Shown here: piece by piece, positions 11,138-25,573 of the stretch | How positions within the stretch are numbered: the first letter of the stretch is position 1 | How the letters are laid out: every line of letters starts with the position of its first letter | Translations under genes and position numbers: made by a program | Source: Paracoccaceae bacterium | GTDB taxonomy: Bacteria; Pseudomonadota; Alphaproteobacteria; Rhodobacterales; Rhodobacteraceae | Direction: 5' to 3' | Length of the DNA stretch: 62,406 nucleotides | NCBI GenBank assembly: GCA_947371955.1 | Contig: CANBRQ010000005.1 | Location: 1 to 62,406 of the forward strand | Notes under the pieces: generated by a model | What the model was told of the DNA's origin: nothing | Databases searched by the model: none | The model's input: the letters and a program-made list of their open reading frames with translations, nothing else

Positions 11138-11929
11138 CTATTGGGCAGGTTTGCCGCGCCGCGATGCCAGCGCCCAGATGGCGAAGGCCACCAGGGTGAC
11201 GGCCATCAGCACCACGGCGGCGGCGGCAACGGTTGGGTCGGTGTTTTCGCGGATGCCGTTCCACATGCGGCGCGGCAGTGTGTAGACGCTGAATTTCGAC
11301 AGGAAGAGGGTGACGACAATCTCGTCCCACGACGAGATGAAGGCGAAGACCGCTCCGGCCAGAATGCCCGGTTTGATGCCCGGCATGATCACACGCCGCA
11401 TCGTCACCCAGTTCGACGCGCCCAGACTGCGCGAGGCTTGTTCAAGGCGCGGGTCGAACCCTGCGAGGGAAGCCGAAACGGTGATCAGCACGAGGGGCGC
11501 GGACAGGACGGTATGGGCCAGGATCAGGCCGGAATAGCTGTCGATCAGGCCCAGGGGCACAAAAAGCCGTGAAAAGGCCATGGCGGCGATGATGGGAGGG
11601 ATCACAAGCGGCAGCAGCAGGATCGCGCGCACCACCTCTCCGGCCCTGGATGACACCCGCCACAGACCTATGGCGCAGAGCGTGCCGATCGAGGTGGCAA
11701 GCACAGTGGAGGCCAAGCCTATGACGCTGCTCTGCCAGAAGCTCGACATCCATTCAGGGCTGGCGAACAGCTTGTCGTAGTATTGCAAAGACAGCTCGTT
11801 GGTCGGGAAGGACAGAAACCGTTTGGGTGTCAGAGAGACCGGGATCGCCACCAACGCCGGGGCCACCAGAAGGACGAGCAGCCCCCACGACAGTGCGGTG
11901 TTGAGCTTTGCGGCAAGGCTTGACCTCAT
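11138..11929 (-). CDS. ABC transporter permease, PotC-like
   Basis: 263 residues from the ATG at 11929, whose first bases overlap the stop of the preceding permease gene (ATGA). Six hydrophobic segments are visible, beginning 'LSWGLLVLLVAPALVAIPVS'. The coupling loop that touches the ATPase is 'EQASRSLGASNWVTMRRVIMPGIKPGI', a match to the EAA motif of polyamine/opine-type importers. It pairs with the adjacent PotB-like permease, the PotD-like binding protein and the PotA-like ATPase of the same operon. Confidence 0.88.
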   Translation of the reverse strand: MRSSLAAKLNTALSWGLLVLLVAPALVAIPVSLTPKRFLSFPTNELSLQYYDKLFASPEWMSSFWQSSVIGLASTVLATSIGTLCAIGLWRVSSRAGEVVRAILLLPLVIPPIIAAMAFSRLFVPLGLIDSYSGLILAHTVLSAPLVLITVSASLAGFDPRLEQASRSLGASNWVTMRRVIMPGIKPGILAGAVFAFISSWDEIVVTLFLSKFSVYTLPRRMWNGIRENTDPTVAAAAVVLMAVTLVAFAIWALASRRGKPAQ

Positions 11930-12765
11930 GTTCTTGCCCCCCCGAATACGGTCGACAGCTTCATGAAGCGCGACATGATGAAAAGCAGTGTCAGCACGCC
12001 GAACAGCAAAAGCGCGGCCAGCATGGCGGCTGTTCCCCATTGCAGCGTGACCAGCACCTGAACCGAGATATATTCTGCCACCATCAGCACCTTGCCGCCG
12101 CCCAGAACCGCCGGGATGACGTAGAAGCCAAGGTTGATGATGAAGACCAAAAGCGAGGCGGCTACGACACCTGCCCGCGTCAAGGGCAGATAAACCCGCC
12201 AGAGGGTCTGCGCGCCGGTAGCCCCCAAAGATCGCGAGGCCTGCACCACCCGCCCGTCGATGCTTTGCATCGAAGCGAGGATCGGCAGCACGGCATAGGG
12301 CACCATGTAGTGGATCATGCCGATCAGCACACCCAACTCGTTGCGCATGAACGGGATGGGCTGGCTGATAATGCCCAAAGCCTCCAGCCCTGAGTTTACC
12401 ACGCCGTTGCGGCCAAGAAGCATCAGCCAGGAAAACGTCCGCACCAGAACCGAAATCCAGAACGACACCAGAAGGAGGCTCAGCATCCGGCTTTGTGTGG
12501 GTCCTGCGGCGTGGACCATGGCATAAGCAATGGAATAGCCGAACAAAACGCTGAACACGGTGCAGATCACGCAAACCCGGATCGTCGTCCACAGGATCCG
12601 GCCCAACGTGTCAGATGTCACCAGTTGCGCGTAATTGCCAAGACCCGGCGTGGGGTCGGTGACGCTCAGCCACAGGATATTGAGGATGGGGCCAAGGAAC
12701 AGCCCCCCCACCAGCAAGAGGAACGGCAGCACCAGAAGCCAGCCAGACTGGATGGGCAAACGCAT
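11926..12765 (-). CDS. ABC transporter permease, PotB-like
   Basis: 279 residues from the ATG at 12765, which has an AAGG element seven bases upstream. An ATG at 12804 would add 13 residues, but it falls in the loop of a perfect hairpin and has no ribosome-binding site. Membrane segments start at 'SGWLLVLPFLLLVGGLFLGPI'. The EAA loop reads 'QASRSLGATGAQTLWRVYLPLTRAGV'. First of the two inner-membrane subunits of the importer; the second gene overlaps by four bases. Substrates of PotB-like proteins include polyamines, opines and other cationic amines, consistent with carnitine-type catabolic genes nearby. Confidence 0.85.
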   Translation of the reverse strand: MRLPIQSGWLLVLPFLLLVGGLFLGPILNILWLSVTDPTPGLGNYAQLVTSDTLGRILWTTIRVCVICTVFSVLFGYSIAYAMVHAAGPTQSRMLSLLLVSFWISVLVRTFSWLMLLGRNGVVNSGLEALGIISQPIPFMRNELGVLIGMIHYMVPYAVLPILASMQSIDGRVVQASRSLGATGAQTLWRVYLPLTRAGVVAASLLVFIINLGFYVIPAVLGGGKVLMVAEYISVQVLVTLQWGTAAMLAALLLFGVLTLLFIMSRFMKLSTVFGGART

Positions 12766-12788
12766 CGGCAAACCTTGTGGGGAAGGAG

Positions 12789-12816
12789 GCACCGGCAGCG
12801 ACATCGCTGCCGGTGC
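12789..12816. repeat. Intercistronic 13-bp hairpin between binding-protein and permease genes
   Basis: GCACCGGCAGCGA and its exact complement flank a two-base loop immediately after the binding-protein stop. Such hairpins commonly protect the 3' end of the upstream message, raising binding-protein yield relative to permease. The loop contains a CAT that reads as ATG for the permease on the minus strand. Confidence 0.75.
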
Positions 12817-12822
12817 AAAGGC

Positions 12823-13929
12823 TCAGCTGATCGCGGCGAGGAAGGCGTTCACGGCGGCGTCCGTGTTTTCACCCCACCATGTCGGATCGTTCAGCGCGAT
12901 CAGAGGCATGTTGGCGGCAGAGGTGATCGAATAGGGCTGATCGCCTTCCGCCATCTTGGCAATCGCTTCGGGGTTGGTGGGCGTCATGCCAAGGCAGGTG
13001 AACAGGTCCAACTGGGACTGCACCGATTGCGCGGTAGCGATGAACGTCTGCGCCGCGGCCCCGCCCGGATTGCCCTTGGGAACAATGTAGGCGCCCGGCA
13101 TCGCCAAGGCCTGGTTCATCACCAGTTTGAAGCGGCCATTGGTATCGGTCTCGATGCTGCGGCCACGGTTTTGCCAGACCATGCCCATCGACACCTCGCC
13201 GTTGACGATCATGTCATGCGCTTCCGAGCCCGAACCCCAATAGATCGAATCCGCCTTGATCGCGCTGATCTTCTTGATCGCCCGGTCGATGTCCAAGGGG
13301 TACAGTTTGTCCTTCTCAACCCCATCCGCCATCAAAGCCGCCTCAAGCGAGCCGTTGGCCCATTTGTAGAGCGAGCGCGTGCCGGGGAACTTGGCGGTGT
13401 CGAAGAAATCGGCCCAGCCGGTCGGGGCGCCGTTCGGATAGGCCTGCGTGTCATACATGAAGGCATAACCGTACAGGATGATCGAGATGCCAAACTCCAG
13501 CGCATAGCCGTCGACGGTCTTGGTTTTGTCGACCACGCTGTAGTCGATTGGCTCCAGATGGCCGGTTTTGCCAAGCGCCACGGCGTCGAACAGGTCGGCG
13601 TCGCAGACGTCGGCGGTGACATGGCCGCTGTCGACCATATCCTTGATCTTGCCCTGAAGGGGGCCAGAGGTGTCGAACTTCAGCGGAACTCCCGTGGCCT
13701 TGGTGAAGGGCACGCCGATCGCGCTTTGGTGGCATTCTTCCGACTGACCACCCCAGTTCCACATCACGATCTCACTCGCCGCCGCTTCTGCGCGCCCGGC
13801 CAGAACCGAGGTGCTGGCAAAGCCAGCCATGCCGCACAGTGCCAGAAAGCTGCGGCGGCCCATCTTGCCGGCCTGAAACGCCTGAGCGCCCTGCAGAAGC
13901 GTCTCACGCATGAACTGTTTGTCGTGCAT
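12823..13929 (-). CDS. ABC transporter substrate-binding protein, PotD-like, Tat-exported
   Basis: 368 residues from the ATG at 13929, preceded by a strong AGGAGG; an upstream start would add 17 unlikely residues. The signal region contains 'MGRRSFLALCGMAGFAS' and ends near 'GRAEAA', a twin-arginine leader that exports a folded protein to the periplasm. The mature part begins 'SEIVMWNWGG' and has the two-lobed PotD/PotF architecture. This protein sets the substrate range of the importer; its ligand is not deducible. The neighbouring catabolic genes point to carnitine or a related cation. A 13-bp hairpin follows the stop. Confidence 0.87.
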   Translation of the reverse strand: MHDKQFMRETLLQGAQAFQAGKMGRRSFLALCGMAGFASTSVLAGRAEAAASEIVMWNWGGQSEECHQSAIGVPFTKATGVPLKFDTSGPLQGKIKDMVDSGHVTADVCDADLFDAVALGKTGHLEPIDYSVVDKTKTVDGYALEFGISIILYGYAFMYDTQAYPNGAPTGWADFFDTAKFPGTRSLYKWANGSLEAALMADGVEKDKLYPLDIDRAIKKISAIKADSIYWGSGSEAHDMIVNGEVSMGMVWQNRGRSIETDTNGRFKLVMNQALAMPGAYIVPKGNPGGAAAQTFIATAQSVQSQLDLFTCLGMTPTNPEAIAKMAEGDQPYSITSAANMPLIALNDPTWWGENTDAAVNAFLAAIS

Positions 13930-14007
13930 TTTCCGAACCTCCTTGTTGATCGGGCCTGAAGCGGCCCTGTTTGATGTCACCGGGTTGATCCCGGTTTGGA
14001 CTTGTTC

Positions 14008-15012
14008 TCAAAGCGTCTGGTCCGTCAGGCGAACCGCCGCCGTCTCGGACCATGTCAAATCCACACGTGCGCCTTCGGGCAGCGCAGCGCCACCGCGCCA
14101 AGCGTCTACGTCGACCTCGATCGGGTCCATGCCCGGCACGGCGACCTGATATTTCAGAACGGCACCGAAATAGGTGACGGATTGGACAGCGCCGCTGACC
14201 TTGTTGGCCCCTTGACCCGCGCCCGCTGGCGCAAGGTCGATCTTTTCCGGGCGCAGGGCGAAGACCGCCCCGTCGCGGCGCAGGAAGTTGCTTTTGCCAA
14301 GGAAGCTCGCGGCAAAGGCGGTCTTTGGCTGCTGATACAGGTCTGACGGAGTGCCGACCTGTTCAATCCGCCCGTTCTGCATGATCACGATGCGGTCGGA
14401 CATCGACAGCGCCTCTTCCTGATCATGGGTGACATAGACAAAGGTCGTGCCGACTCGCTGGTGGATGTCCTTCAACTGCGCTTGCACCTCGATCCGCAGC
14501 TTCTTGTCGAGCGCGCCTAAGGGTTCATCCAGCAAAAGGACCGGCGGTGCGAAGCACAGGGCCCGCGCCAAGGCCACGCGCTGCTGTTGGCCACCTGAAA
14601 GCTCTTTCGGAAAGCGTTTGGCAAAGGGCGTCAGGCGCACAAGGTCCAGCATTTCCGCAACCCGGGCGGCAATCTCGGCCTTGGGACGTTTGCGGACCGA
14701 CAGCGGGTAGGCGATGTTGTCTTTCACCGTCATATGGGGAAACAGGGCGTAACCCTGAAACACCATGCCGAAGTTGCGCTTTTCCGCCGGCGTGTTCGCA
14801 ATGGAGGTGCCGTCCAGCAGGATATCGCCCGAGGTGATGTCCTGAAACCCGGCGATCATCATCAGAAGCGTGGTCTTGCCGGACCCTGACGGGCCCAGCA
14901 GGGTCAGAAACTCGCCCCGCTCAATCTGCAGATCAACGCTATCGACGGCAGGATAGCTGCCATACCGCTTGCATAGCGATCTCAGGTGCAGGCTGCCGCC
15001 GGGCCCAGTCAT
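14008..15012 (-). CDS. ABC transporter ATP-binding protein, PotA-like
   Basis: 334 residues from the ATG at 15012, two bases after the BKACE stop; the longer open frame upstream is antisense noise within BKACE. Walker A is 'GPSGSGKTT', the Q-loop 'GMVFQGYALFPHMTV', the ABC signature 'LSGGQQQR', Walker B 'VLLLDEPLGALD', and the H-loop 'THDQEEAL'. A C-terminal TOBE-type regulatory domain follows from about residue 250 ('FALRPEKIDL'). It energises uptake through the two PotBC-like permeases encoded downstream. Confidence 0.92.
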   Translation of the reverse strand: MTGPGGSLHLRSLCKRYGSYPAVDSVDLQIERGEFLTLLGPSGSGKTTLLMMIAGFQDITSGDILLDGTSIANTPAEKRNFGMVFQGYALFPHMTVKDNIAYPLSVRKRPKAEIAARVAEMLDLVRLTPFAKRFPKELSGGQQQRVALARALCFAPPVLLLDEPLGALDKKLRIEVQAQLKDIHQRVGTTFVYVTHDQEEALSMSDRIVIMQNGRIEQVGTPSDLYQQPKTAFAASFLGKSNFLRRDGAVFALRPEKIDLAPAGAGQGANKVSGAVQSVTYFGAVLKYQVAVPGMDPIEVDVDAWRGGAALPEGARVDLTWSETAAVRLTDQTL

Positions 15013-15014
15013 AC

Positions 15015-15905
15015 TCAGGCGTCCGCGCCGCGCAGCTTCAGCTTGTTGCGTGCCTGCTGCGGCGTCAAAACGCGGGCGCCCATGCGGGTGATGATGCCTA
15101 TGACGCGCTCGACCAGTTGTGCATTGGTCGCCAGAATGCCGCGATCCAGAAAGAGGTTGTCCTCCAGCCCGACCCGCACATTGCCACCAAGTGCCACGGC
15201 GGCGGCGGCCATCGGCATCTGCATCCGACTGATTCCGAAGCTGGCCCAGCTTGCTTCGGGGGGCAGCTGTTCCTTCATCGCCTTCATGGTTTCGACCGTC
15301 TGATCTGCGCCCCATGGAATGCCAAGACACAACTGGAACATCGGCGGATCGGCCAGAAGCCCTTCGGCCCACATCGCTTTGGCAAAGCGGATATGGCCCA
15401 GTTCGAACACCTCAAGTTCAGGCTTCACGCCCCATTCTTTCGTCAGGGCCGCCATCCGGCGCAGGATCGGCGGGGTCGAGATATAGATGCTGTTGTCGTT
15501 GCCGAAGTTCAGCGTGCCGCAATCCAGGCTGCAAATCTCGGGCAGGCAGTCCTTCACATGGGCCAAACGTTCGTCCGGCCCGATCATGTCGGTGCCAGGT
15601 CCGGGCATCGCCCAATTGGCCGGATCGGGCGTCCAGTCGCCACCCATTCCCGCCGTCAGGTTGATGACGATGTCAGTACCACTGGCGCGCACACGGTCGA
15701 CCACTTCGCGGAACAGCGCCGGGTCGCGAGAGCCTTTTCCGGTGACCGGATCGCGCACATGGATATGCGCCACTGATGCGCCGGCCTTCGCGGCCTCAAT
15801 CGCTTCACGGGCGATTTCTTCGGGTGTTACAGGGACATGCGGGCTTTTTCCGGTCGTGTCTCCGGCCCCGGTCACTGCACATGTCACCACCACGTCAAAG
15901 TTCAT
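15015..15905 (-). CDS. Beta-keto acid cleavage enzyme (BKACE/DUF849), CdhC-like
   Basis: 296 residues from the ATG at 15905 with GGGAGG upstream. The zinc-binding 'AHIHVRDP' (H47, H49) of the BKACE family is intact. BKACE enzymes exchange a beta-keto acid with acetyl-CoA to give acetoacetate and a new acyl-CoA. In Pseudomonas carnitine degradation, CdhC converts 3-dehydrocarnitine to betainyl-CoA in this way. The same job is suggested here by the divergent CdhR-like regulator and the carnitine dehydrogenase gene 1.2 kb away. It is the first gene of the eight-gene operon, so cleavage and uptake are co-expressed. The family is certain; the exact keto acid is inferred. Confidence 0.88.
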
Positions 15906-15983: not shown

Positions 15984-17096
15984 ATGTCGAAAAATCGCAC
16001 CACCTCAACGGATCATGCCGGCGCAGGGGAAAGCAAGAAAACGGGGCTGGTTCAGGCCACGTTCCTGATCGTGCCGCGCTTCAACATGTCGACGCTGGTC
16101 ACCATGATCGAGCCGATGCGGATCGCGAACTATCTGTCACCGCAGCCGATTTATGCCTGGGATATCGTCTCGTTTGACGGGGCGGAAATTACCGCGAGCA
16201 ATGGCTTTTCCTTACCCGCTCATTTGCCGCCTGACCGCAACCGGCGCGGCGAGGTGATCTTTGTCATGGGCAGTTGGGGGGCAGAAAGCTATCGGAACTC
16301 AACTCTGTTTTCATGGATACGCCGACAGGCCCGCGAAGGGGCCCGGATCTGCGCGGTAGAGTTGGGAACCTATCTGGTCGCCCGATCTGGCTTGTTGTCG
16401 GGCCGCAAGGTCACCACGCATTGGTCCTATGGGCCGGGCTTTCAAGAGCAGTTTCCCGACATCGCATTCGTTGAACAGATATTTACAGTGGATGACGCCA
16501 TCCTGACCTGTGGCGGAGGTCTTGCCGGGGTGGATCTGGTCCTGCGCCTGATCGGCGAGGATCAGGGCGAAAGCCTTGCCGGGGAAATCGCCGATCAGTT
16601 GATGCACCATCCGGTCCGCGCCGCCAATGCGCCGCAACGGCGTACAATGGGCCGCAGCACCGATACGCTGCCACCTTTGGTGCGCGAGGCGATTGCCCTG
16701 ATCGAAAAGAACATAGCCGAACCGTTGAGCGTTCCCTCCATTGCCAAATCTCTCAGCGTGTCGCAGCGCCAGATGGAACGTCAGTTCAAAGACGCCATCG
16801 GCTGCACCGTCGTACAATTCGGCCTGCTTCTGCGTTTGCAGCACGCGCGGGTTCTGTTGATCTCCACCACGCTGTCGGTACGCGACATTGCCACGGCGTC
16901 GGGCTTCAACACCTTGTCACACTTCGCTTTTTCCTTCGGAAAATGCTTTGGCCGTAGGCCCAGCGAATACCGTCAGGCCTGGCCCGAAAAAGACAGCGCC
17001 CCCAGTTGGCCGGGGACGCTGTCGAAATTTCTGCTGGCCCTACAGAACCGGGGCACCGCGAAGCCAAGTCAGGTCTTAAGCAAGAGCCGCCTTTAA
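15984..17096 (+). CDS. GlxA-family (DJ-1 + AraC HTH) regulator, CdhR-like
   Basis: 370 residues: an N-terminal DJ-1/PfpI-like sensor domain (about 20-205, with 'RICAVELGTYLVARSGLLSGRKVTTHW') and a C-terminal AraC-type double helix-turn-helix (about 225-330, 'LSVPSIAKSLSVSQRQMERQFKDAIG' and 'VRDIATASGFNTLSHFAFSF'). Regulators of this build (CdhR, GbdR, ArgR) control carnitine, glycine betaine and arginine use. It is divergent from the BKACE-transporter operon with a 78-bp spacer and its 3' end overlaps the convergent carnitine dehydrogenase gene by four bases. An activator of both units is the likely role. Confidence 0.87.
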   Translation: MSKNRTTSTDHAGAGESKKTGLVQATFLIVPRFNMSTLVTMIEPMRIANYLSPQPIYAWDIVSFDGAEITASNGFSLPAHLPPDRNRRGEVIFVMGSWGAESYRNSTLFSWIRRQAREGARICAVELGTYLVARSGLLSGRKVTTHWSYGPGFQEQFPDIAFVEQIFTVDDAILTCGGGLAGVDLVLRLIGEDQGESLAGEIADQLMHHPVRAANAPQRRTMGRSTDTLPPLVREAIALIEKNIAEPLSVPSIAKSLSVSQRQMERQFKDAIGCTVVQFGLLLRLQHARVLLISTTLSVRDIATASGFNTLSHFAFSFGKCFGRRPSEYRQAWPEKDSAPSWPGTLSKFLLALQNRGTAKPSQVLSKSRL

Positions 17097-18040
17097 GCGC
17101 GGCGGACGTCGCGAATGGCGTTGAGCACGGCGACAATCTCGCGGTCGCGGGTGGCGGCCATGTCCTCGAAATGGCGACCAGCGGCGATCTCGTTGCAGCC
17201 GTCCACCATCCTGTCACGCAACTCTTGCGTCAGATCCGGAGCAACCAGCCGGGTCCAAGGCCATTTCAAGGCCGGGCCAAATTGGTCAAGATTGGTTGCC
17301 ATGCCCCCTTCGCCACAGGCCACGTGAAAGGCCATGCATTGACCCTGAACCGCCATGCGCGGTGCGGGGCCGTTCATCAGGGCGTTGTCGATATCGGCCG
17401 GGGTCGCCTCGCCATTGGCGACCATGTGCAGCGCCTCTCGCCACAAGGCCTCTTGCAGGCGGGTGGCCACGAAACCGGGGATTTCCTTCTTCATCGCAAG
17501 GGGAGCCTTGCCGGCGATCGTGTAGAACGCGACAGCCCAGGCCACCGCCTCGGGTTCCGTTCCCTTGCCACCCACCACCTCGACCAAAGGCAGCAGATAG
17601 GGCGGGTTGAACGGGTGGCCGATCACGGTGCGCTGCGGTGTGGCGCAATCGGCCTGAATCTGGCTCATCATGAGGCCCGAGGTTGATGAGGCGATGACGC
17701 AGTCACGCGGTGCCAGTTCCCCCAGCCGCTTGTAAAGCGCCTGCTTGATGTCCAGCCGTTCCGGCGCGCTTTCTTGGATGAACTGCGCGGTCTTCACCGC
17801 CTCGGCCAGATCGGTGATAATGCGCAGCCGGTCAAGCGAGGCCCCCTCCGCCAGACCCAAAGCCTGAAGGCTGATCCAGCCGGTGTTGATGACTGACATC
17901 AGCGCCGCCGTTTCGGATTCGGCGTGGATATAGGCGGTCACATCATAGCCGCGCGCCAGAAAATGCGCGGCCCAGCCGCCGCCGATCGGGCCGGCGCCAA
18001 GCGTGGTGACGCGGGTGACGGATTTGGGATCAGGATACAT
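17093..18040 (-). CDS. cdhA: L-carnitine 3-dehydrogenase
   Basis: 315 residues, the normal size. N-terminal NAD-binding glycine motif 'GAGPIGGGW'. Strong family landmarks: 'FIQESAPERLDIK', 'SSTSGL', 'GHPFNPPYLLPLVEVVGG', 'EIPGFVATRLQEALWREALH' and 'FGPALKWPWT', which match characterised carnitine dehydrogenases more closely than 3-hydroxybutyryl-CoA dehydrogenases. It would oxidise the 3-hydroxyl of carnitine to 3-dehydrocarnitine, the substrate of the BKACE enzyme. It starts directly after the stop of the CaiD-like gene with no spacer, so the two are co-translated. A related 3-hydroxy quaternary acid could also be the substrate. Confidence 0.87.
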   Translation of the reverse strand: MYPDPKSVTRVTTLGAGPIGGGWAAHFLARGYDVTAYIHAESETAALMSVINTGWISLQALGLAEGASLDRLRIITDLAEAVKTAQFIQESAPERLDIKQALYKRLGELAPRDCVIASSTSGLMMSQIQADCATPQRTVIGHPFNPPYLLPLVEVVGGKGTEPEAVAWAVAFYTIAGKAPLAMKKEIPGFVATRLQEALWREALHMVANGEATPADIDNALMNGPAPRMAVQGQCMAFHVACGEGGMATNLDQFGPALKWPWTRLVAPDLTQELRDRMVDGCNEIAAGRHFEDMAATRDREIVAVLNAIRDVRRA

Positions 18041-18841
18041 TTAGCGCCCCTTGAACGTGGGATTGCGTTTTTCGACGAAGGCCGCGATGCCCTCGGCCGA
18101 GTCTTCCGATTTCAGCATGGCGCGGTAGGTCGGCAGATCGCCTTTGCGCATGTGGGTGAAGGCCGCCTCCAAAGGCATCGCCTGGATGGCGCGCTCCACT
18201 TCTTTGACGGTCTGCATCGCTAAGGGGGCAGAGGTTGCAATCTGGTCAGCCCAAGCCCGGGCGGTGTCCATCAGCGCCTCTTTTGGCACCACCTTGTTGA
18301 CCAAGCCATAATGCGCCGCCTCAGCGGCTGACATCCGGCGACCCAGCAGCAGCATTTCCATTGCAATATTACGTGGGATAAGGCGCGGCAGGCGTTGCAG
18401 TGCGCCTGCGTCCGGCACGATGCCAAGCGGCATTTCGGGCAAGGCAAACTGCACGTGGTCGGCTGCAATGATCAGATCGCAAGACATGGCAATCTCGAAC
18501 CCGCCGCCGATCGCCATGCCGTTCAGGGCGCAGATCACCGGCTTGTTCATCTTCCAATTCTCGGTCAGCCCGCCAAAGCCGCCGATGCCGTAGTCTGCCG
18601 TCTCCCACCAGTTATCCAGCGTCATCTCGCCCGCGTTCAGGGCCTTGAGGTCCCAACCCGCGGAAAAGATACGGTCGCCTTCCGCCGTCAGGATGCCAAC
18701 CCAAAGGTCCGGGTCATCGCGCAGCAGGGCAAAGGCGCGGCCCATATCCTGGCTCATCTCGACGTCAATCGCGTTGACCTTGGGTTTGTTCAGTTTGACT
18801 TCCAGCACCCGCCCGCGGCGGGTCACCTCAACATGGCTCAT
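18041..18841 (-). CDS. caiD: Carnitinyl-CoA dehydratase (crotonobetainyl-CoA hydratase)
   Basis: 266 residues of the crotonase fold. The 'FSAGWDLKA' and 'GGFGGLTE' elements, the oxyanion-hole strands 'ALNGMAIGGGFEIAMSCDLIIAA' and 'ALPEMPLGIVPDAG', and the ending 'EGIAAFVEKRNPTFKGR' all parallel Escherichia coli CaiD. It would interconvert carnitinyl-CoA and crotonobetainyl-CoA. The start at 18841 has a purine-rich site upstream and lies ten bases after the monooxygenase gene; a longer frame into that gene is spurious. Its presence beside carnitine dehydrogenase suggests that crotonobetaine or gamma-butyrobetaine can enter the pathway through CoA esters. Confidence 0.85.
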   Translation of the reverse strand: MSHVEVTRRGRVLEVKLNKPKVNAIDVEMSQDMGRAFALLRDDPDLWVGILTAEGDRIFSAGWDLKALNAGEMTLDNWWETADYGIGGFGGLTENWKMNKPVICALNGMAIGGGFEIAMSCDLIIAADHVQFALPEMPLGIVPDAGALQRLPRLIPRNIAMEMLLLGRRMSAAEAAHYGLVNKVVPKEALMDTARAWADQIATSAPLAMQTVKEVERAIQAMPLEAAFTHMRKGDLPTYRAMLKSEDSAEGIAAFVEKRNPTFKGR

Positions 18842-18851
18842 GGTCTTCCTT

Positions 18852-19886
18852 TCAGGCAAAAGCGGGCAGGACTTCGGCGCAGAACAGGTCCAATGAGCGT
18901 TTCTGCTCGGCCAAGCCAAGCCCAAGGCTGGCATAGTAGATGAACTCGTCCACCCCCAAAGCTTCATAGAGTTTCAGCTTGGCAATGACCTCATCCGGGG
19001 TGCCGAATATGAGGTTGCGATGCAGCATTTCGGGGTCATATTCGGCGCGATTGCCAAGCTGGTCGAACGGGATCGACTTTGGGAAGCCGTTGGTGACATC
19101 GCCCATGTTCTTGAACAGGTTCTCAAACTGTGACAACTGGCGTTGGGCGGCGCGGATGGGCACCATCCAATCCTCTTTGCGGTCATAAACCGCTGTGTGA
19201 CGCATCATCGCCATGATCGGGCGTTTGCAGCCGGGGTTGTTGGCGAGGGCTTCGGTCATGCGTCCCATATAGATTTCGGCTTCCGACATGTCGCGGGTCA
19301 AGGGCCAGGACATGATGTTGCACCCGTTCTTGACGGCGTAGTCGTAGGTGATCGGCGCACGGGCGGCGATCCAGACCGGAACCTCGGCCTGCAGGGGTTT
19401 GGGACAAGATGTGGCGGTGGGGAAGCCCCAGAACTCGCCTTTGTGTTCCGTATCGCCCTTCCACAGGGCGCGCACCACTGGCAGCATTTCCTGCATGTAG
19501 CGCCAGGCATCCGACTGTTTCAGCCCCGGATGCATGCGGTCAAATTCACGCTGATACGCGCCCGAACCGATGCCGAATTCCAGCCGCCCGCCCGAGATCA
19601 GGTCAAGGAAGGCCGCCTCTCCCGCCACCTTGATCGGATGCCAGTAGGCCGCCGCCACGCAGGCCGTGCCAAGGCGGATGCGGTCGGTATGGCCCGCCCA
19701 CCAAGCCAGGATGGAAAACGGGTTGGGCGCGATGGTCATTTCCAGCGCGTGATGCTCGGCCGCCCAGACGATGTTGAAGCCGCCCTGATCGGCCATCTGC
19801 ACCATGTCCAGCGTGTGGCGGGCGACGTCCTTCATATCAAGGCTGTCGTCCATGCGTTCAAGATTGATGGCGAGTTGGAACTTCAT
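18852..19886 (-). CDS. Luciferase-like (LLM) flavin-dependent oxidoreductase
   Basis: 344 residues from the ATG at 19886, with GGAGG seven bases upstream. Bacterial luciferase-like barrel: 'ADQGGFNIVWAAEHHALEMT', 'RIRLGTACVAAAYWHPIKVAGEAAFLDLISGGRLEFGIGSGA'. These enzymes use reduced FMN from a separate reductase. A flavin reductase domain is encoded nearby inside the CoA-transferase fusion (22867-25005) and is the obvious partner. It is the first gene of a leftward unit with caiD and cdhA, preceded by palindromes and a terminator hairpin. That links a monooxygenation step to carnitine-type chemistry, an arrangement I do not know from described pathways. Confidence 0.85.
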   Translation of the reverse strand: MKFQLAINLERMDDSLDMKDVARHTLDMVQMADQGGFNIVWAAEHHALEMTIAPNPFSILAWWAGHTDRIRLGTACVAAAYWHPIKVAGEAAFLDLISGGRLEFGIGSGAYQREFDRMHPGLKQSDAWRYMQEMLPVVRALWKGDTEHKGEFWGFPTATSCPKPLQAEVPVWIAARAPITYDYAVKNGCNIMSWPLTRDMSEAEIYMGRMTEALANNPGCKRPIMAMMRHTAVYDRKEDWMVPIRAAQRQLSQFENLFKNMGDVTNGFPKSIPFDQLGNRAEYDPEMLHRNLIFGTPDEVIAKLKLYEALGVDEFIYYASLGLGLAEQKRSLDLFCAEVLPAFA

Positions 19887-19945
19887 GTCATCCTCCGCGA
19901 GGGGCTCTGTTACACAGATGATTGGAGGGAAAGCCCGAGAGGGTT

Positions 19946-20000: not shown

Positions 20001-20004
20001 GCAT

Positions 20005-20028: not shown

Positions 20029-20048
20029 TCTGGCAAGATGTTTGGTCT

Positions 20049-21530
20049 TCAGCGCATGACAAAGGGGTTGGCCACAGGCTCGGTTGAGGTGTTGACCCAG
20101 ACGGTTTTCGGCCTTGTGTAGTCGTACATCGCCTGAAACCCGCTTTCGCGCCCGTAGCCCGACCCTTTCACGCCACCGAAGGCCGCGATGGGCGAAACGG
20201 CCCGGTAGGTGTTGATCCAGACGATCCCCGACCTGATCGCCTTGGCCATCCGCATCTGCCTTGCGCCATCGCGAGTGAATATGCCTGCCGCCAGCCCGTG
20301 CAGGGTGTCATTGGCCAGAGCAATCACCTCGGCTTCGGTCTTGAAACGCAGGACGCTGAGGACGGGGCCGAACAGTTCCGTGTCGACAATGCGCAGGTCC
20401 TGACGCGGACATTCGACAATGGTGGGTTCGTAATAGGTGCCCCCCAGCCCCTCGGGCTGCTTGCCACCGCACAGGATGCGCGCACCCTCGGTCTGGGCGT
20501 GGGCAACCTCGCGTTCAATGGTCGCCAATTGGCCGTTGGTGCAGAGGGGGCCCATCTGGGTGTCCTCGGCCAAAGGGTCGCCGATGCGGATTTGCTTGGC
20601 AAGTGCGACGATCCTTTCAAGGAAAGCGTCGGCGATATCCTCGTGCAGGTAAAGCCGCGATCCGGCCACGCAGCTTTGCCCGGTCGCCCCGAAAATCCCT
20701 GCGATGGAACCGTTCACAGCGCTGTCGATATCGGCATCGTCAAACACGATGAAGGGTGACTTTCCGCCCAGTTCCAGCGAGACCTGCGCGAAATTCTCGC
20801 GCGAGTTGGTCAGAACAGCCCGCCCGGCCCCCGGCCCCCCGGTAAAGGAAATCCGCGCAACAAGCGGGTGGGAGGTCAGGACCCGCCCACAGGGCTCGCC
20901 ATGGCCGGATACGATGTTCACAACACCGGGGGGGAAACCCGCCGCCTCAATCAACTCGCCGAACTCCAGCATGGCGGCAGAGGCGTGCTCTGAGGCTTTT
21001 AGGACCACCGTGTTGCCGGCCGCGAGTGCCGGACCGATCTTGACGGCCACAAGGAACAGTTGCGAATTCCACGGCACGATGGCGGCGACCACGCCAAGCG
21101 GTTCGCGGCGGGTGAAGACGAACAGGTCGGGCTTGTCAATGGGCAGCGTCTCGCCAGAAATCTTGTCAGCGCAGCCCGCGTAGAAGTGGAAGAATTCCGC
21201 GATATATTTGGCCTGCCAACGGGTTTCCTTCAGCATCTTGCCGGTGTCGATGGTCTCCGTGCGGCCAAGGCTTTCGGACTTTTCCGCCAGCAGATCGCCA
21301 AGCTTGCGCAGGCAGCGGCCCCGAGCGGTCGGCGTCATGTCGGCCCAGGGGCCAGAGGTGAAGGCGCGGTGCGCGGCCTTTACGGCGCGGTCGACATCCT
21401 CGGCGCTCGCCTCCGGCACGCGGGCCCAGACCTGACCGGTCGTCGGGTTCACGCTGTCAAACATCGCGCCATCCGACGCCGCCACCCAAGCGCCGTCAAT
21501 CAGCATCCGGTAGTCCTTGATCGCCGTCAT
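20049..21530 (-). CDS. Aldehyde dehydrogenase
   Basis: 493 residues, full-length NAD(P)-dependent ALDH. The catalytic cysteine is in 'GQSCVAGSR', the general-base glutamate in 'LELGGKSP', cofactor binding in 'PWNSQLFL' and 'FTGGPGAGR', and the C-terminal 'FGPVLSVLRF' motif is intact. The sequence is of the betaine-aldehyde/gamma-trimethylaminobutyraldehyde type at family level; substrate cannot be fixed. It stands alone between a terminator hairpin and a divergent promoter shared with RidA. A role oxidising an aldehyde released by the oxygenase is plausible. Confidence 0.9.
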   Translation of the reverse strand: MTAIKDYRMLIDGAWVAASDGAMFDSVNPTTGQVWARVPEASAEDVDRAVKAAHRAFTSGPWADMTPTARGRCLRKLGDLLAEKSESLGRTETIDTGKMLKETRWQAKYIAEFFHFYAGCADKISGETLPIDKPDLFVFTRREPLGVVAAIVPWNSQLFLVAVKIGPALAAGNTVVLKASEHASAAMLEFGELIEAAGFPPGVVNIVSGHGEPCGRVLTSHPLVARISFTGGPGAGRAVLTNSRENFAQVSLELGGKSPFIVFDDADIDSAVNGSIAGIFGATGQSCVAGSRLYLHEDIADAFLERIVALAKQIRIGDPLAEDTQMGPLCTNGQLATIEREVAHAQTEGARILCGGKQPEGLGGTYYEPTIVECPRQDLRIVDTELFGPVLSVLRFKTEAEVIALANDTLHGLAAGIFTRDGARQMRMAKAIRSGIVWINTYRAVSPIAAFGGVKGSGYGRESGFQAMYDYTRPKTVWVNTSTEPVANPFVMR

Positions 21531-21593
21531 CGCCTAGCCCTCCATGAACGCTGCCGGACCAGTCTGCGGCAGGCCGCACGCAACATGTGCGGA

Positions 21594-21616
21594 TTTTCGC
21601 CGTAGCTTGACGAAAA
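21594..21616. promoter_or_regulatory. Inverted repeat in the ALDH/RidA divergent promoter
   Basis: TTTTCG-N11-CGAAAA lies between the divergent ALDH (start 21530) and RidA (start 21673) genes. The half-sites match those at 19972-20000 before the LLM gene. This suggests one regulator for all three transcripts; no regulator gene directly adjoins the site. Confidence 0.5.
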
Positions 21617-21672
21617 AAGCGCATCCGGGGGTCGGGGGGCGGTGTCTCTTGAACGCCAGCGTGGAGGACAGC

Positions 21673-22077
21673 ATGACCCATCGAAAAGAGGTGATTGGAG
21701 AGCCTTTGGTGATCGGCGGGCGCAGGCTGTCGCTGTCTCGGGCGATCCGGGCCGGAGATACGGTCTATCTGACCGGCCAGATCCCGATGCTCAACGGCGT
21801 GCCTATGACGACCGGCAGCATCGAGGACCAGACCCGCGCCGTTCTGGATGCCATCACTGAAACGCTGGCCTTGGCAGGCTGCACCCGGGATCACGTCGTC
21901 AAGGCGATGATCTGGCTGCGCGAGCGCGCCGATTTTCCCGGTTTCAATGCGGTTTATGGCGAATACTTCCCGCACGACCCTCCGGCCCGCTCGGCCATCG
22001 TCAGCGACCTGCTGGTAGATTGCCGTGTCGAGGTTGAGGTGGTGGTCTGGCATCCCTTGCCCGGTGTCACCGCATGA
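21673..22077 (+). CDS. RidA/RutC-family protein
   Basis: 134 residues from the ATG at 21673, after a GTGGAGGAC site; an in-frame upstream ATG at 21544 would only add non-homologous residues across the promoter. The YjgF/RidA fold is seen from 'RAGDTVYLTGQIP' to 'DCRVEVEVVVW', with the conserved arginine in 'ARSAIV'. RidA proteins hydrolyse reactive enamines/imines; RutC acts on aminoacrylate-type products in uracil breakdown. First gene of the rightward module, overlapping the hydrolase by ATGA, so it probably clears a nitrogenous intermediate made by the oxygenase. Confidence 0.87.
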   Translation: MTHRKEVIGEPLVIGGRRLSLSRAIRAGDTVYLTGQIPMLNGVPMTTGSIEDQTRAVLDAITETLALAGCTRDHVVKAMIWLRERADFPGFNAVYGEYFPHDPPARSAIVSDLLVDCRVEVEVVVWHPLPGVTA

Positions 22078-22874
22078 TCCGAGCACCGGATGAAACAGTC
22101 TATGGTCTAGAGGGGCCGCAGGATGCGCCTGTGGTCGTGTTGATCCACGGGCTGGGCCTAAACCGCGCGGTCTGGGATCAGATGGTGCCTGCGCTTTCGG
22201 CCAAGTTTCGGGTGTTGTCCTATGACATGCTGGGTCACGGCCAGACGCCTGCACCAAAGGCTGCGCCAAATCTGGCGATGCTTTCGGGCCAAATGGCTGG
22301 GCTTTTGGATCATCTGGGCGTTCAAAAGGCGGCCCTTGTGGGTTTCTCCTTGGGCGGCATGATCGCCCGCCGCTTTGCTCAGGATTACCCAAGTCGCACG
22401 CTGGCGCTTGCGATCCTTCATTCGCCGCACCGGCGCACGCCCGAGGCACAGGCAGCCATCCTCGCACGGGTAAAGCAAGCCAAACACGAGGGGCCTGCAT
22501 CGACGGTCGAGGCTGCGCTGGTGCGCTGGTTCACCGATGCGTTCCGGCTGCAGCGCCCAGACGTCATGGACCGGGTGCGCGGCTGGGTTCTGGCCAATGA
22601 CCCTGCAACCTATCCTTTCTTCTACGAAATCCTGGCAACCGGCATCGCGGAACTCGTGGCGCCGCATCCGCCCATTGCTGCCCCGACGCTGGTCGTGACC
22701 GGCGATCAGGACTTTGGCAACGGCCCCGAGATGGCCCATGCCATCGCTGCCGAAGTGGCCGGAGCACAAACCCTGATCCTGCCAGGTCTGCGCCACATGG
22801 CGCTGATGGAGCGGCCCGCACTAACCAACGCGGCCTTGCTGTCCTTCCTTTCAAAGGCTGCGCCACATGGCTGA
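22074..22874 (+). CDS. Alpha/beta hydrolase, RutD or enol-lactonase type
   Basis: 266 residues. Oxyanion region 'VVLIHGLGLNRAVWD', nucleophile S92 in 'VGFSLGG', acid in 'VTGDQDFG', and histidine in 'PGLRHMALMERP': a complete triad. Closest family resemblance is to 3-oxoadipate enol-lactonases and RutD-like hydrolases. The start is coupled to RidA (ATGA) and the 3' end overlaps the fusion gene by eight bases. In Rut-like logic it would hydrolyse the product that follows RidA action. Substrate unknown. Confidence 0.87.
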   Translation: MIRAPDETVYGLEGPQDAPVVVLIHGLGLNRAVWDQMVPALSAKFRVLSYDMLGHGQTPAPKAAPNLAMLSGQMAGLLDHLGVQKAALVGFSLGGMIARRFAQDYPSRTLALAILHSPHRRTPEAQAAILARVKQAKHEGPASTVEAALVRWFTDAFRLQRPDVMDRVRGWVLANDPATYPFFYEILATGIAELVAPHPPIAAPTLVVTGDQDFGNGPEMAHAIAAEVAGAQTLILPGLRHMALMERPALTNAALLSFLSKAAPHG

Positions 22875-25005
22875 GGGCAAGGGCATCCTGTCAGGCCTGC
22901 GTGTCCTTGATCTGAGCCGGATGCTGTCTGGCCCCTACTGCACGATGATGCTGGCCGATCAGGGGGCCGAGGTCATCAAGATTGAATCCGAAGAAGGCGA
23001 CACCAGCCGCGCCAACGGCCCCTTCCGCGACGATGATCCGGATCACGAATGGGCCGGGTACTTCGTCAGCCTCAACCGCTCAAAGAAAAGCGTCATGCTG
23101 GACCTGAAGTCCGCTGCGGGTAAAGCTGATCTGCTGGCACTGGTGGCTACGGCGGATGTTCTGGTGGAAAACTATCGCCCCGGCGTGATGGAGCGTCTTG
23201 GTCTGTCCTACGAGGTGCTAGCCGCGACCAACCCGCGCCTCGTGCATGCGGCGATCCGGGGGTTTGGTGACCCGCGCTCGGGCGCAAGCCCCTATGCCGA
23301 CTGGCCGTCCTACGATGTGGTGGCGCAAGCGATGGGTGGGCTGATCGGGCTGACCGGACCTGATGCCGGGCATCCCACCAAGGTCGGCCCCGGCATCGGC
23401 GATGTCTTTGCCGGGGCGCTGATGGCCTTTGGTATCCTTGCGGCACTCCGCCAAGCCGAAGCGACCGGACGCGGCCAATTCCTTGATATTGCGATGTATG
23501 ACGCGATGATCAGCCTGTGCGAACGGGCGATCTATCAGCATGACTTCGACGGGTCGGTGCCGGGGCCAGAGGGCAACGCCCATCCTTTGCTGGCGCCTTT
23601 CGGCGTCTTTCCGGCCAAAGACGGCCATGTCGCCATTGGCATCGTAGACGATACATTCTGGCGCCGTCTGGCTCTCGCCATGGGACGTGAGGATCTAGGC
23701 CTTGACCCGCGCTTTGCCACACGCTCGGCGCGACGGCTCAATGCCGGGATGTTGAACAGCATGGTTGCTACATGGTCGGCTGCGCTGACCAAGGCAGAGC
23801 TTGCGAGCTGTCTGGGCGGTCTCGTGCCCTTCGGTCCGGTCAATTCCGTGAAGGATATCTTCGCCGATCCGCATGTGGCGGCGCGCGGTATGATTGCAGA
23901 CGTGCCCCATGCCGACCCTTTGCGGCGGCCGTGGAAAGTAGCAGCGTCGCCGCTGCGCTTTTCGGCCAGCCCCAGCCCCGCGCCCGCCACTCCGGCGCGG
24001 CTGGGGGCGCTGCTGGCGCAAGATTTCCTGCCCGCGCCCGCCGTGACGGACCCGCGTGCCCTGCGCGACGCCTTTGGCCGCTTTGCAACCGGCGTTACCG
24101 TCCTGACTGCCCGGCAGCCAGATGGCTTGCCACGTGGCTTCACCGCCAATTCCTTCACCTCGGTCTCGCTGGACCCGCCTCTGCTTCTGGTCTGTCTGGC
24201 CAAATCGGCTCACAGTTGCGAAACCTTCGTCATGGCCAGCCATTTCGGCGTGAATGTGCTTGGGCAGGATCAACAGGCGCTGTCGGCACTTTTCGCCTCC
24301 CGCGAGGCGGACAAGTTTCAGCGCTGCGTCTGGCATGAGGGTGCGGGCCGTGTGCCCTTGCTGGACGGGACCCTTGCCCGGTTCGTTTGCATGCAGGAAC
24401 GGCTTGTCGATGCCGGCGATCATCTGGTGCTGATCGGCCGCGTAGTGGATTTCTCGACCGGAGAGGGAGCGCCGCTTGGCTATTTCCGCGGCCGCTACTT
24501 CTCGGTCGAAGCGGATGCGCAGCTGGTGCAGGCGGTCGCCGCAACGTCTGGCGCCAGTGTGGGCGCTGTCCTGCTGCAAGACGGCGCTGTGCTGATGAAA
24601 GAGTCGTCGGCTGGCCATCTGACATTGCCCCTGTCGCCCGAACCCAGCCCCAGCATCGACAGCCTGCGCAACCGTCTGGCATCCCTTGGTCTGCATGCCG
24701 AGGTCGAGTTCCTGTACGCGGTCTTCGAGGACCGCGCACGTGCCAGCCACGGCATCTATTACCATGGACAAGTTCAGGGTGCCGCTCCGAAAGGAATGCG
24801 CTTTTGCCCGCTGGCGACCCTGCCATGGGACGCCATGCCCAACCTTGCCGAACGCAGCATGCTGCAACGCTATGCCGAAGAAACCAGAATCGGGGCCTTT
24901 GGCATCTATCAGGGCAACGAGACTGAAGGAAAAGTGCGCCGCCTTAGCGGGGCCCTAACAGGAGAACACCATGTTTCCCGAACTGCGCAAAGTCGTGACC
25001 TATGA
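22867..25005 (+). CDS. Three-part fusion: CaiB-type CoA-transferase, flavin reductase, possible Nudix-like domain
   Basis: 712 residues. Residues 1-390 form a complete class III CoA-transferase ('GLRVLDLSRMLSGPY', 'SLNRSKKSVMLDL', catalytic Asp at D179 in 'GIGDVFAG', 'GRGQFLDIAMYDAM'). A Pro/Ala-rich linker (about 368-395) leads to a flavin reductase domain (about 396-550: 'FGRFATGVTVLTA', 'GFTANSFTSVSLDPP', 'HFGVNVL'), like RutF/HpaC. Residues 562-680 ('GASVGAVLLQDGAVLMKE', 'GMRFCPLATLPWDAMP') have a Nudix-like strand pattern but no intact Nudix box, so this third part is tentative. The transferase would activate a carboxylate; the reductase would feed FMNH2 to the LLM oxygenase. I know of no described protein with this layout. 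No frameshift joins the parts. Confidence 0.85.
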   Translation: MAEGKGILSGLRVLDLSRMLSGPYCTMMLADQGAEVIKIESEEGDTSRANGPFRDDDPDHEWAGYFVSLNRSKKSVMLDLKSAAGKADLLALVATADVLVENYRPGVMERLGLSYEVLAATNPRLVHAAIRGFGDPRSGASPYADWPSYDVVAQAMGGLIGLTGPDAGHPTKVGPGIGDVFAGALMAFGILAALRQAEATGRGQFLDIAMYDAMISLCERAIYQHDFDGSVPGPEGNAHPLLAPFGVFPAKDGHVAIGIVDDTFWRRLALAMGREDLGLDPRFATRSARRLNAGMLNSMVATWSAALTKAELASCLGGLVPFGPVNSVKDIFADPHVAARGMIADVPHADPLRRPWKVAASPLRFSASPSPAPATPARLGALLAQDFLPAPAVTDPRALRDAFGRFATGVTVLTARQPDGLPRGFTANSFTSVSLDPPLLLVCLAKSAHSCETFVMASHFGVNVLGQDQQALSALFASREADKFQRCVWHEGAGRVPLLDGTLARFVCMQERLVDAGDHLVLIGRVVDFSTGEGAPLGYFRGRYFSVEADAQLVQAVAATSGASVGAVLLQDGAVLMKESSAGHLTLPLSPEPSPSIDSLRNRLASLGLHAEVEFLYAVFEDRARASHGIYYHGQVQGAAPKGMRFCPLATLPWDAMPNLAERSMLQRYAEETRIGAFGIYQGNETEGKVRRLSGALTGEHHVSRTAQSRDL

Positions 25006-25573
25006 CGAGATCATCTACCGCGAGGGCCTGCGTCCCGCCGACCCTCCGCTGCGGCTGATCGGCGTGGCCGCCGTCGTCAAGAACCCTTGGTACGGGCGCG
25101 GGTTTGTCGAGGACTTGTCGCCAGAGATCAACCGCATCTCGCCGGTTCTGGGCAAGATGCTGACCGATATGCTGATCGCCTTGGCCGGTTCGGGGGATGC
25201 GATCGAGGCCTACGGAAAGGCGTCGATGGCCGGAACCGACTGCGAGTTGGAACATGGGTCGGCCCTGATCCACACACTGCGCTACGGCAACTTCTACCGC
25301 GAGGCAGTGGGAGCCAAGACCTACCTGGGTTTCACCAATGGACGCGGCGCCGCAAACAGTCAGATCCAGATTCCCCTGATGGACAAGCACGACAGCGGCA
25401 GGCGGTCGCACTACCTAACCGTGCAGTTTTCGATCCCGGATGCGCCGGGGCATGATGAGTTGGTCGCAGCCTTGGGTGCTTCGACCGGCGGACGTCCGCA
25501 CCACCGGATCGGCGACCGCTATGCTGACTTGGCAGCGATTGGCAGGGACATCGAAAACCCGGCAGGCGTCTGA
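24971..25573 (+). CDS. AA_synth (DUF1185) family protein
   Basis: 200 residues, full-length member of the 'amino acid synthesis' family PF06684, with 'LRLIGVAAVVKNPWYGRGFVEDLSPEI' and 'LEHGSALIH' as landmarks. The start at 24971 has AGGAG upstream and lies inside the end of the fusion gene, overlapping it by 35 bases. The biochemical role of this family is not established. Such genes often sit beside LLM oxygenases in catabolic clusters, as here. It is the last gene of the rightward module; a plasmid scar begins just after it. Confidence 0.8.
   Translation: MFPELRKVVTYDEIIYREGLRPADPPLRLIGVAAVVKNPWYGRGFVEDLSPEINRISPVLGKMLTDMLIALAGSGDAIEAYGKASMAGTDCELEHGSALIHTLRYGNFYREAVGAKTYLGFTNGRGAANSQIQIPLMDKHDSGRRSHYLTVQFSIPDAPGHDELVAALGASTGGRPHHRIGDRYADLAAIGRDIENPAGV

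What the first reader, a model, noticed from the sequence alone, without database searches (positions are those of the whole stretch)
22867..25005. Uninterrupted fusion of a CaiB-type CoA-transferase, a flavin reductase and a possible Nudix-like domain
Seen: one 712-residue frame with a full class III CoA-transferase (D179 in place), a linker, a RutF/HpaC-like flavin reductase, and a C-terminal domain with Nudix-like strands but no intact Nudix box. Known: these activities are normally separate proteins. Inferred: CoA activation and FMNH2 supply for the nearby luciferase-like oxygenase are physically coupled, which would put an oxygenase reaction next to a CoA-ester step. I know of no described protein with this order.
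Basis: partly seen in the sequence, partly recalled or inferred. Interest (0 to 1): 0.82.

Follow-up and report, generated by a model that had tools for sequence, protein, structure and literature searches.

The report
CoA-transferase fused to flavin reductase
A marine-type bacterium carries one protein that joins a CoA-transferase to a flavin reductase with a degenerate Nudix-fold tail; relatives share it beside genes that resemble a plant-alkaloid (trigonelline-type) ring-opening pathway, so it is real and uncommon but built of known parts.

Summary
Window 22867-25005 (+) is one open 712-codon frame: class III CoA-transferase (res 8-375, Asp179 in place), variable linker, flavin reductase (403-547), and a C-terminal domain whose predicted fold is Nudix, without a Nudix box (0 of 82 aligned rows). 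It is not an artefact: I read 15 fused proteins, all Rhodobacterales where named or placed; 14 of 15 keep the Nudix-fold domain. The 13 transferase domains put on a tree form one clade, so the fusion probably arose once; at least one lineage (Sulfitobacter, L054) seems to have lost the transferase again. Reductase plus tail is an older two-domain protein (PDB 3RH7), usually not fused, in a five-gene module (PF06684, alpha/beta hydrolase, reductase, luciferase-like monooxygenase, aldehyde dehydrogenase) that fits the trigonelline (tgn) genes. The fused version sits in a related cluster joined to carnitine-like genes; a carnitine-dehydrogenase-like gene is present with all 15. The nearest stand-alone transferases suggest a small dicarboxylate substrate. 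Best reading: the reductase, gated by its tail, feeds FMNH2 to a ring-opening oxygenase; the transferase later activates the ring-derived acid. Channelling is unproven and the fusion is dispensable in some relatives. New variant of known parts.

The parts
22867..25005 (+). fusion protein, 712 aa: CoA-transferase + flavin reductase + Nudix-fold domain
   Evidence: full model mean pLDDT 89.8, pTM 0.61
22888..23991 (+). class III CoA-transferase domain, res 8-375, nucleophile Asp179
23992..24048 (+). variable linker, res 376-394; in-frame GTG codon (24043-24045) near where stand-alone reductases start; no Shine-Dalgarno seen by eye
24049..24516 (+). flavin reductase domain, res 395-550; AGDH (516-519) invariant in 82 of 82 rows
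24532..24966 (+). degenerate Nudix-fold domain, res 556-700; Arg668 in 82 of 82, Glu672 in 80 of 82 rows
24971..25573 (+). PF06684 'amino acid synthesis' (TgnF-like) protein; overlaps the fusion gene by 35 bp
   Evidence: TgnF link from PMC7913881 passages
22074..22874 (+). alpha/beta hydrolase, overlaps the fusion start by 8 bp
21673..22077 (+). RidA family protein (start placed from relatives; longest frame begins 21544)
20049..21530 (-). aldehyde dehydrogenase (about 53-61% identical to the one in the tgn-like modules)
18852..19886 (-). luciferase-like monooxygenase (start placed from relatives; longest frame begins 20036)
18041..18841 (-). enoyl-CoA hydratase, crotonobetainyl-CoA-hydratase-like (below the NCBIfam cutoff; start placed by eye)
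17093..18040 (-). 3-hydroxyacyl dehydrogenase, L-carnitine-dehydrogenase-like (below the NCBIfam cutoff)
15984..17096 (+). GlxA/GbdR-like AraC-type regulator (GbdR model below cutoff)
15015..15905 (-). beta-keto acid cleavage enzyme (DUF849 type)
11138..15000 (-). ABC transporter: ATPase, solute-binding protein, two permeases (outer limits approximate)
9971..11128 (-). acyl-CoA dehydrogenase
7875..10067 (-). NDP-forming acyl-CoA synthetase
6748..7917 (-). serine hydrolase (PF00144); a 65% relative lies in the cluster of L044

Best explanation
It is a bifunctional enzyme of a betaine-type catabolic cluster in Rhodobacterales. (1) Reductase plus Nudix-fold tail is a TgnA-type NADH:flavin reductase that supplies FMNH2 to the luciferase-like monooxygenase encoded at 18852-19886 (inferred from the shared module). 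[quoted passage not shown] baumannii HPA hydroxylase reductase does (inferred by analogy). (3) The oxygenase opens an N-heteroaromatic ring, probably of a pyridinium betaine, and the aldehyde dehydrogenase makes an acid (inferred). (4) The CoA-transferase domain moves CoA, perhaps from succinyl-CoA, to that ring-derived carboxylate; the hydratase, carnitine-dehydrogenase-like enzyme and beta-keto acid cleavage enzyme then break the chain (inferred). (5) The fusion arose once, by loss of the stop between a newly acquired transferase gene and the reductase gene. Its likely benefit is expression at a fixed ratio and co-location of two homodimerising domains (recalled for both families), not a shared active site. 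Shown: architecture, recurrence, predicted fold, cluster, one transferase clade. Inferred: chemistry, substrate, gating.
For: Fused protein with the same neighbours in Parasedimentitalea marina pW43B (62.8% over query 3-693) and in other loci. Reductase tree: 12 fused rows, 1 remnant and 6 unfused rows form one clade (SH-aLRT 99); unfused L054 groups with fused L039 and L052 (99). Transferase tree: 13 fused domains are one clade (99), next to stand-alone enzymes. Of those, the three annotated records that I opened (Tistrella, Variovorax, Paracoccus) have the operon PrpD-MaoC-acyl-CoA dehydrogenase-MaoC-CoAT-CoA ester lyase. Module: of 79 loci (best matches of a capped scan), 52 carry the tgn-like oxygenase; 52 of 52 have PF06684 and the hydrolase and 51 the aldehyde dehydrogenase within 6 kb. 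Acinetobacter soli carries the module plus, about 3 kb on, a succinate-semialdehyde dehydrogenase above the TIGR01780 cutoff. TgnA/TgnB open the trigonelline ring (PMC8269262, passages); TgnB is shown in a luciferase-like network (PMC11354265, figure legend); TgnF is called homologous to a PF06684-type protein (PMC7913881, passages). A carnitine-dehydrogenase orthologue (65% or more) is present with 15 of 15 fused proteins and not found in the genome of the remnant L046 (best 38%).
Against: No activity data. The A. baylyi Tgn sequences were not at hand for comparison; the window oxygenase is only 39% identical to the module's usual oxygenase in the same genome. I saw no succinate-semialdehyde dehydrogenase in the window cluster, and the cluster has a RidA gene of which no 60%-identical relative lies within 6 kb in any of the 52 tgn-like loci, so the substrate is probably not trigonelline itself. 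L054, L049 and Aminobacter pSR3 keep the dehydrogenase without an orthologous transferase (L054 and L049 genomes: best 40% and 37%; Aminobacter: only the 18.9-kb stretch seen, 33%), so the transferase is not indispensable. In two unannotated relatives of the stand-alone transferase (Cupriavidus metallidurans, Cupriavidus sp. KK10; 6-kb flanks) I found the acyl-CoA dehydrogenase but no CoA ester lyase, which weakens the dicarboxylate argument. One fused protein (L112) lacks the tail.
Confidence: 0.58

Rival explanations
1. Gene fusion without functional coupling: two independent enzymes of one operon became one chain by stop-codon loss and stay so by drift.
For: The same reductase is also fused to its other upstream neighbour, the alpha/beta hydrolase, in 11 of 82 rows with 8 label changes on the tree (5 forced by well-supported branches), so this gene fuses readily; the linker is variable; the transferase is missing in L054, reduced to a remnant in L046, and the tail is missing in L112.
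Against: Fused members stay fused over deep divergence (54-84% identity to the window for 11 rows), Asp179 is kept in 13 of 13 and dN/dS is low in the four pairs tested; I saw no fused lineage that split back into two intact genes.
Confidence: 0.3
2. The cluster degrades gamma-butyrobetaine or carnitine-type trimethylammonium compounds; the oxygenase and reductase act on that chain and not on a ring.
For: [quoted passage not shown]
Against: The first four score below their NCBIfam cutoffs (the cleavage enzyme was not scanned there). The oxygenase, aldehyde dehydrogenase, hydrolase, reductase and PF06684 genes occur in L047 and L095 without the carnitine-like genes in the fetched stretch, and no dehydrogenase orthologue was found in those two genomes (best 42% and 36%; hydratase and cleavage enzyme were not searched genome-wide).
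Confidence: 0.2
3. The Nudix-fold tail is still an enzyme, for example a nucleotide or CoA hydrolase, with a non-standard motif.
For: Fold match to Nudix hydrolases; conserved Arg668, Glu672, Tyr681, Gly683, Gly688.
Against: 0 of 82 rows hold the Nudix box or REUxEExG (3 hold EExGU); by my placing of the motif the two Glu positions are Ala605 and Ser606 in the window, Glu in 10 and 4 of 82 rows.
Confidence: 0.1
4. Local sequencing or assembly artefact.
For: The own genome is a draft of 353 contigs.
Against: 15 fused sequences read, one on a plasmid record described as complete.
Confidence: 0.01

Closest known systems
PDB 3RH7, SMa0793 of Sinorhizobium meliloti (putative oxidoreductase)
   Same: reductase domain plus Nudix-fold C-terminal domain over the full length (E 2.7e-64; fold match)
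   Different: no CoA-transferase; no paper on its function found; [quoted passage not shown]
TgnA, reductase of trigonelline monooxygenase (Acinetobacter baylyi)
   Same: likely role and type of gene neighbourhood; Acinetobacter soli has the two-domain reductase in the module
   Different: fusion state and sequence of A. baylyi TgnA not seen here and not compared
C1 reductase of p-hydroxyphenylacetate 3-hydroxylase (A. baumannii, PDB 5ZC2)
   Same: flavin reductase with an extra C-terminal domain, reported as self-inhibitory and relieved by substrate (PMC10816480, passages)
   Different: sequence match covers the reductase domain only (chain 12-173 of 315)
Class III CoA-transferases of PrpD/MaoC/CoA-ester-lyase operons (Tistrella, Variovorax, Paracoccus)
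   Same: 52-61% identical to the transferase domain, neighbouring clade
   Different: stand-alone, in a different operon
Alpha/beta hydrolase-flavin reductase fusions in the tgn-like module (Mesorhizobium and others)
   Same: the same reductase fused to an upstream operon neighbour
   Different: other partner, separate origins

Membership tests
Class III CoA-transferase | full CoA_transf_3 domain | tested here: met
   E 3.5e-120, profile 1-358 of 366
Class III CoA-transferase | catalytic Asp (its role in the family is recalled) | tested here: met
   Asp179 aligns with Asp in 5 of 5 printed alignments; 13 of 13 fused
Succinyl-CoA:mesaconate CoA-transferase (NF041294) | score above the curated cutoff | tested here: not met
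   415.5 bits, cutoff 700
CaiB, L-carnitine CoA-transferase (NF002914) | score above the curated cutoff | tested here: not met
   112.9 bits, cutoff 413
Flavin reductase (PF01613) | complete domain | tested here: met
   E 1.1e-39, profile 1-152 of 153; AGDH in 82 of 82 rows
Flavin reductase (PF01613) | NADH-dependent FMN/FAD reduction | not testable with these tools
   needs an assay
Nudix fold superfamily | fold | tested here: met
   predicted model and Foldseek
Nudix hydrolase | Nudix box GX5EX7REUXEEXGU (motif recalled) | tested here: not met
   0 of 82 strict, 0 of 82 REUxEExG, 3 of 82 EExGU
Trigonelline (tgn) module | reductase, luciferase-like oxygenase, aldehyde dehydrogenase, alpha/beta hydrolase and PF06684 genes together (composition of tgn partly recalled) | tested here: met
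   window 18852-25573
Trigonelline (tgn) module | succinate-semialdehyde dehydrogenase gene | tested here: inconclusive
   none noted in the window cluster 6748-25573; the rest of the genome was not searched
Trigonelline (tgn) module | sequence match to A. baylyi TgnA-F | not tested
   sequences not at hand
Trigonelline (tgn) module | oxidation of trigonelline | not testable with these tools
   needs growth or enzyme assay
L-carnitine degradation (carnitine dehydrogenase NF005471, crotonobetainyl-CoA hydratase NF002936) | scores above the curated cutoffs | tested here: not met
   314.1 against 414; 313.8 against 500

The most novel reading that the evidence does not exclude
A new betaine catabolic route in Rhodobacterales in which a tgn-type two-component oxygenase opens a pyridinium-type ring, and the ring-derived acid, which may keep the C4-N skeleton of crotonobetaine, is activated by a CoA-transferase and degraded by carnitine-type enzymes; flavin reduction (first step) and CoA activation are on one chain, gated by a Nudix-fold sensor that has lost hydrolase activity.
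Probability: 0.35. Interest if true: 0.72.

Novelty: new variant of a known kind. Interest (0 to 1): 0.5.

Why it matters
It links a degenerate Nudix-fold domain to a widespread but little-studied reductase type, gives a structural-genomics orphan (3RH7) a likely pathway, and points to a catabolic cluster for betaines that my paper searches did not find described. Trigonelline and homarine were measured in marine particles (PMC8269262, passages; a later correction, PMC10134881, seen as a listing, says that homarine was overstated there). The fusion also ties a CoA-transferase of unknown substrate to an oxygenase pathway and so narrows what to test.

Tried and rejected
Artefact reading rejected (15 fused sequences). 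True Nudix hydrolase thought unlikely (no box). Strict CaiB or carnitine membership rejected (NCBIfam cutoffs). Homarine as the substrate was considered; the paper on homarine catabolism is not held, so it was left open. Paper searches listed no paper that describes this fusion; those that bear on it most are 18 (no paper), 93 (11 listed) and 94 (1, unrelated). The library lacks most subscription papers, and the 2018 trigonelline pathway paper is not held.

Rows dropped: of the 79 loci, L074 and L111 were missed by my motif filter and L112 and L116 were left out as incomplete at the C-terminus, so 75 of 79 entered alignment A2, with the window and L006, L036-L039 and L041; L040 (nearly identical to L039) was left out too. 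L112 is in the transferase tree. Four transferase rows (L014, L015, L018, L002) aligned badly and were dropped before the structure job; they were kept in the transferase tree, where they are long branches. The second structural comparison library was not available.

The link between the transferase and the carnitine-dehydrogenase-like gene is suggestive only: among members of the reductase clade without an intact fused transferase, the orthologue is not found in the genomes of L046, L047, L095 and L041 (G037) and is found in those of L054 and L049; L048 is a second copy in a genome that also has a fused one.
Full report
What is there. The frame 22867-25005 (+) is open for 712 codons. It overlaps the upstream alpha/beta hydrolase gene by 8 bp and the downstream PF06684 gene by 35 bp (coordinates). 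Pfam finds CoA_transf_3 at 8-375 and Flavin_Reduct at 403-547, and nothing after that. AlphaFold2 models the whole chain with mean pLDDT 89.8 and pTM 0.61, so the domains are well defined but their relative placement is not. The C-terminal domain alone gives pLDDT 84.0 and pTM 0.78; Foldseek returns Nudix proteins and PDB 3RH7. No row of 82 has a Nudix box; 3 of 82 have the looser EExGU.

Is it an artefact? No. tblastn found the same architecture on Parasedimentitalea marina plasmid pW43B (query 3-693, 62.8%; annotated only as CoA transferase). In a sample of 292 genomes of the order, 5, the own one included, hold it (the TGA flagged inside the G106 match lies just past the end of the 694-aa frame that I read, so it is the normal stop). 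One scan of named genomes (capped; the best 80 of 581 relatives kept, 79 loci) gave 8 more with an intact transferase, among them L112 that lacks the tail, and one remnant, L046. A 15th, 701 aa, was read in the Roseovarius spongiae genome. In samples of 385 genomes of the class and 398 of the phylum only the own genome matched at E<=1e-150. All fused cases that are named or placed are Rhodobacterales; rare cases elsewhere are not excluded.

Origin. The reductase with its tail looks like the older unit. It matches 3RH7 over its full length, and the own genome has an unfused copy at G000:C108 (43%; neighbours). In the reductase tree (82 rows; quick method, SH-aLRT only) the 12 fused rows, one remnant and 6 unfused rows form one clade with support 99; the label needs 4-5 changes, and L054 from Sulfitobacter groups with fused L039 and L052 (99), so at least one lineage seems to have lost the transferase. 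In the transferase tree the 13 fused domains form one clade (99) next to stand-alone enzymes from Tistrella, Variovorax, Paracoccus, Cupriavidus and Rhodococcus. Three fused sequences (L006, L045, L052) still carry a Met, and the window a GTG-coded Val, near the place where stand-alone reductases begin. Simplest history: a transferase gene moved in between the hydrolase and reductase genes, the stop was lost once, and some lineages later lost the transferase. L046 keeps roughly 180 residues of it; in the alignment Asp179 has no Asp counterpart and the C-terminal part is missing; no dehydrogenase orthologue was found in its genome (best 38%). It comes from a MAG.

Neighbourhood. Of the 79 loci, 52 carry an oxygenase of the usual module type within 6 kb of the reductase (50% or more to the own-genome copy); 52 of 52 have PF06684 and the hydrolase, and 51 the aldehyde dehydrogenase, within 6 kb; none has a RidA of 60% identity in that range or the transferase fused. 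Ten loci have the window type of oxygenase within 6 kb; 9 have RidA and 7 a fused transferase, the remnant L046 counted. The other 17 loci have neither; some contigs end near by. The usual module fits the trigonelline genes: TgnA/TgnB open the ring (PMC8269262, passages), TgnB is a flavin-dependent monooxygenase shown in a luciferase-like network (PMC11354265, legend), TgnF is called homologous to a PF06684-type protein (PMC7913881, passages), and Acinetobacter soli adds a succinate-semialdehyde dehydrogenase. That TgnC is an aldehyde dehydrogenase and TgnD an alpha/beta hydrolase, and the chemistry of ring cleavage, are recalled. The window cluster combines this upper module with an acyl-CoA synthetase, acyl-CoA dehydrogenase, hydratase, carnitine-dehydrogenase-like enzyme, beta-keto acid cleavage enzyme and ABC transporter, in the same order in P. 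marina. In Roseovarius spongiae the order is much the same, but I found no RidA and only a short ABC-ATPase match there. A dehydrogenase orthologue is present with 15 of 15 fused proteins; in G106 it lies on another contig together with the oxygenase.

What the transferase may do. It is not CaiB by score. The three annotated records of near stand-alone relatives that I opened have an operon with PrpD, MaoC hydratases, an acyl-CoA dehydrogenase and a CoA ester lyase, as for mesaconate- or itaconate-like acids (inference from the enzyme set). In two unannotated Cupriavidus records the acyl-CoA dehydrogenase was found but no lyase, so the rule is not strict. In Aminobacter pSR3 the same cluster has an unfused reductase and no orthologous transferase in the 18.9 kb seen; it is followed by a more distant set of that operon type with its own CoA-transferase (33%). 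By recalled Tgn chemistry, opening a pyridinium ring and oxidising the aldehyde gives such dicarboxylates, or, without a ring carboxylate, a four-carbon acid with nitrogen at C4 like crotonobetaine; the second would explain the carnitine-like enzymes. This is inference.

How it probably works. NADH reduces FMN on the reductase domain; FMNH2 reaches the oxygenase, a separate protein. The tail, with invariant Arg668 and near-invariant Glu672, could bind a zwitterionic substrate and release inhibition, as reported for the A. baumannii HPA hydroxylase reductase (PMC10816480, passages), whose extra domain is not matched by sequence. The transferase would act at least one enzyme later. So the fusion ties two steps of one pathway but probably not one reaction to the next.

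Verdict. Real, recurrent, uncommon, made of known parts; a new variant. The pathway and the sensor role are the interesting open points.

Noticed in passing
L059, L064, L069, L070, L072, L075, L077, L079, L082, L084, L085: The same reductase is fused to the upstream alpha/beta hydrolase in 11 of 82 rows, with 8 label changes on the tree (5 forced by well-supported branches), so it fuses repeatedly with neighbours.
   Followed up: partly
G000:C108:2500-14507 (L036): The own genome holds a second, tgn-like module beside a 487-aa carnitine-dehydrogenase-like gene, acyl-CoA dehydrogenase and beta-keto acid cleavage enzyme; the contig ends after the oxygenase gene.
   Followed up: partly
L046:4412-5914: Remnant of the CoA-transferase domain in frame with an intact reductase, in a Neomegalonema MAG.
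   Followed up: yes
L112:8798-10456: Fused protein of 552 aa without the Nudix-fold domain.
   Followed up: no
L052:4840: A Rieske oxygenase 64% identical to the window's (5249-6418) lies between the oxygenase and aldehyde dehydrogenase genes, so the window's Rieske gene may belong to the pathway.
   Followed up: no
window 29429-30191: IstB (IS21) ATPase split over two frames, with an integrase-like fragment at 28869-29450 and a helicase fragment at 26658-27974: mobile debris just downstream of the cluster.
   Followed up: no
window 30416-34635: HlyD-type adaptor and AcrB-type efflux pump genes, followed by a pyridine-nucleotide disulphide oxidoreductase at 34706-35992.
   Followed up: no
L126:10954-16197 (Aminobacter sp. 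SR38 plasmid pSR3): The unfused version of the cluster is followed by a PrpD, acyl-CoA dehydrogenase, CoA-transferase, MaoC, CoA ester lyase set, a distant form (about 30-36%) of the operon type in which the nearest stand-alone transferases lie.
   Followed up: partly
G106 contigs C3 and C7: In this genome the fusion, hydrolase, PF06684 and aldehyde dehydrogenase genes are on one contig, the dehydrogenase and an 84% oxygenase on another, with a second oxygenase copy (73%).
   Followed up: no
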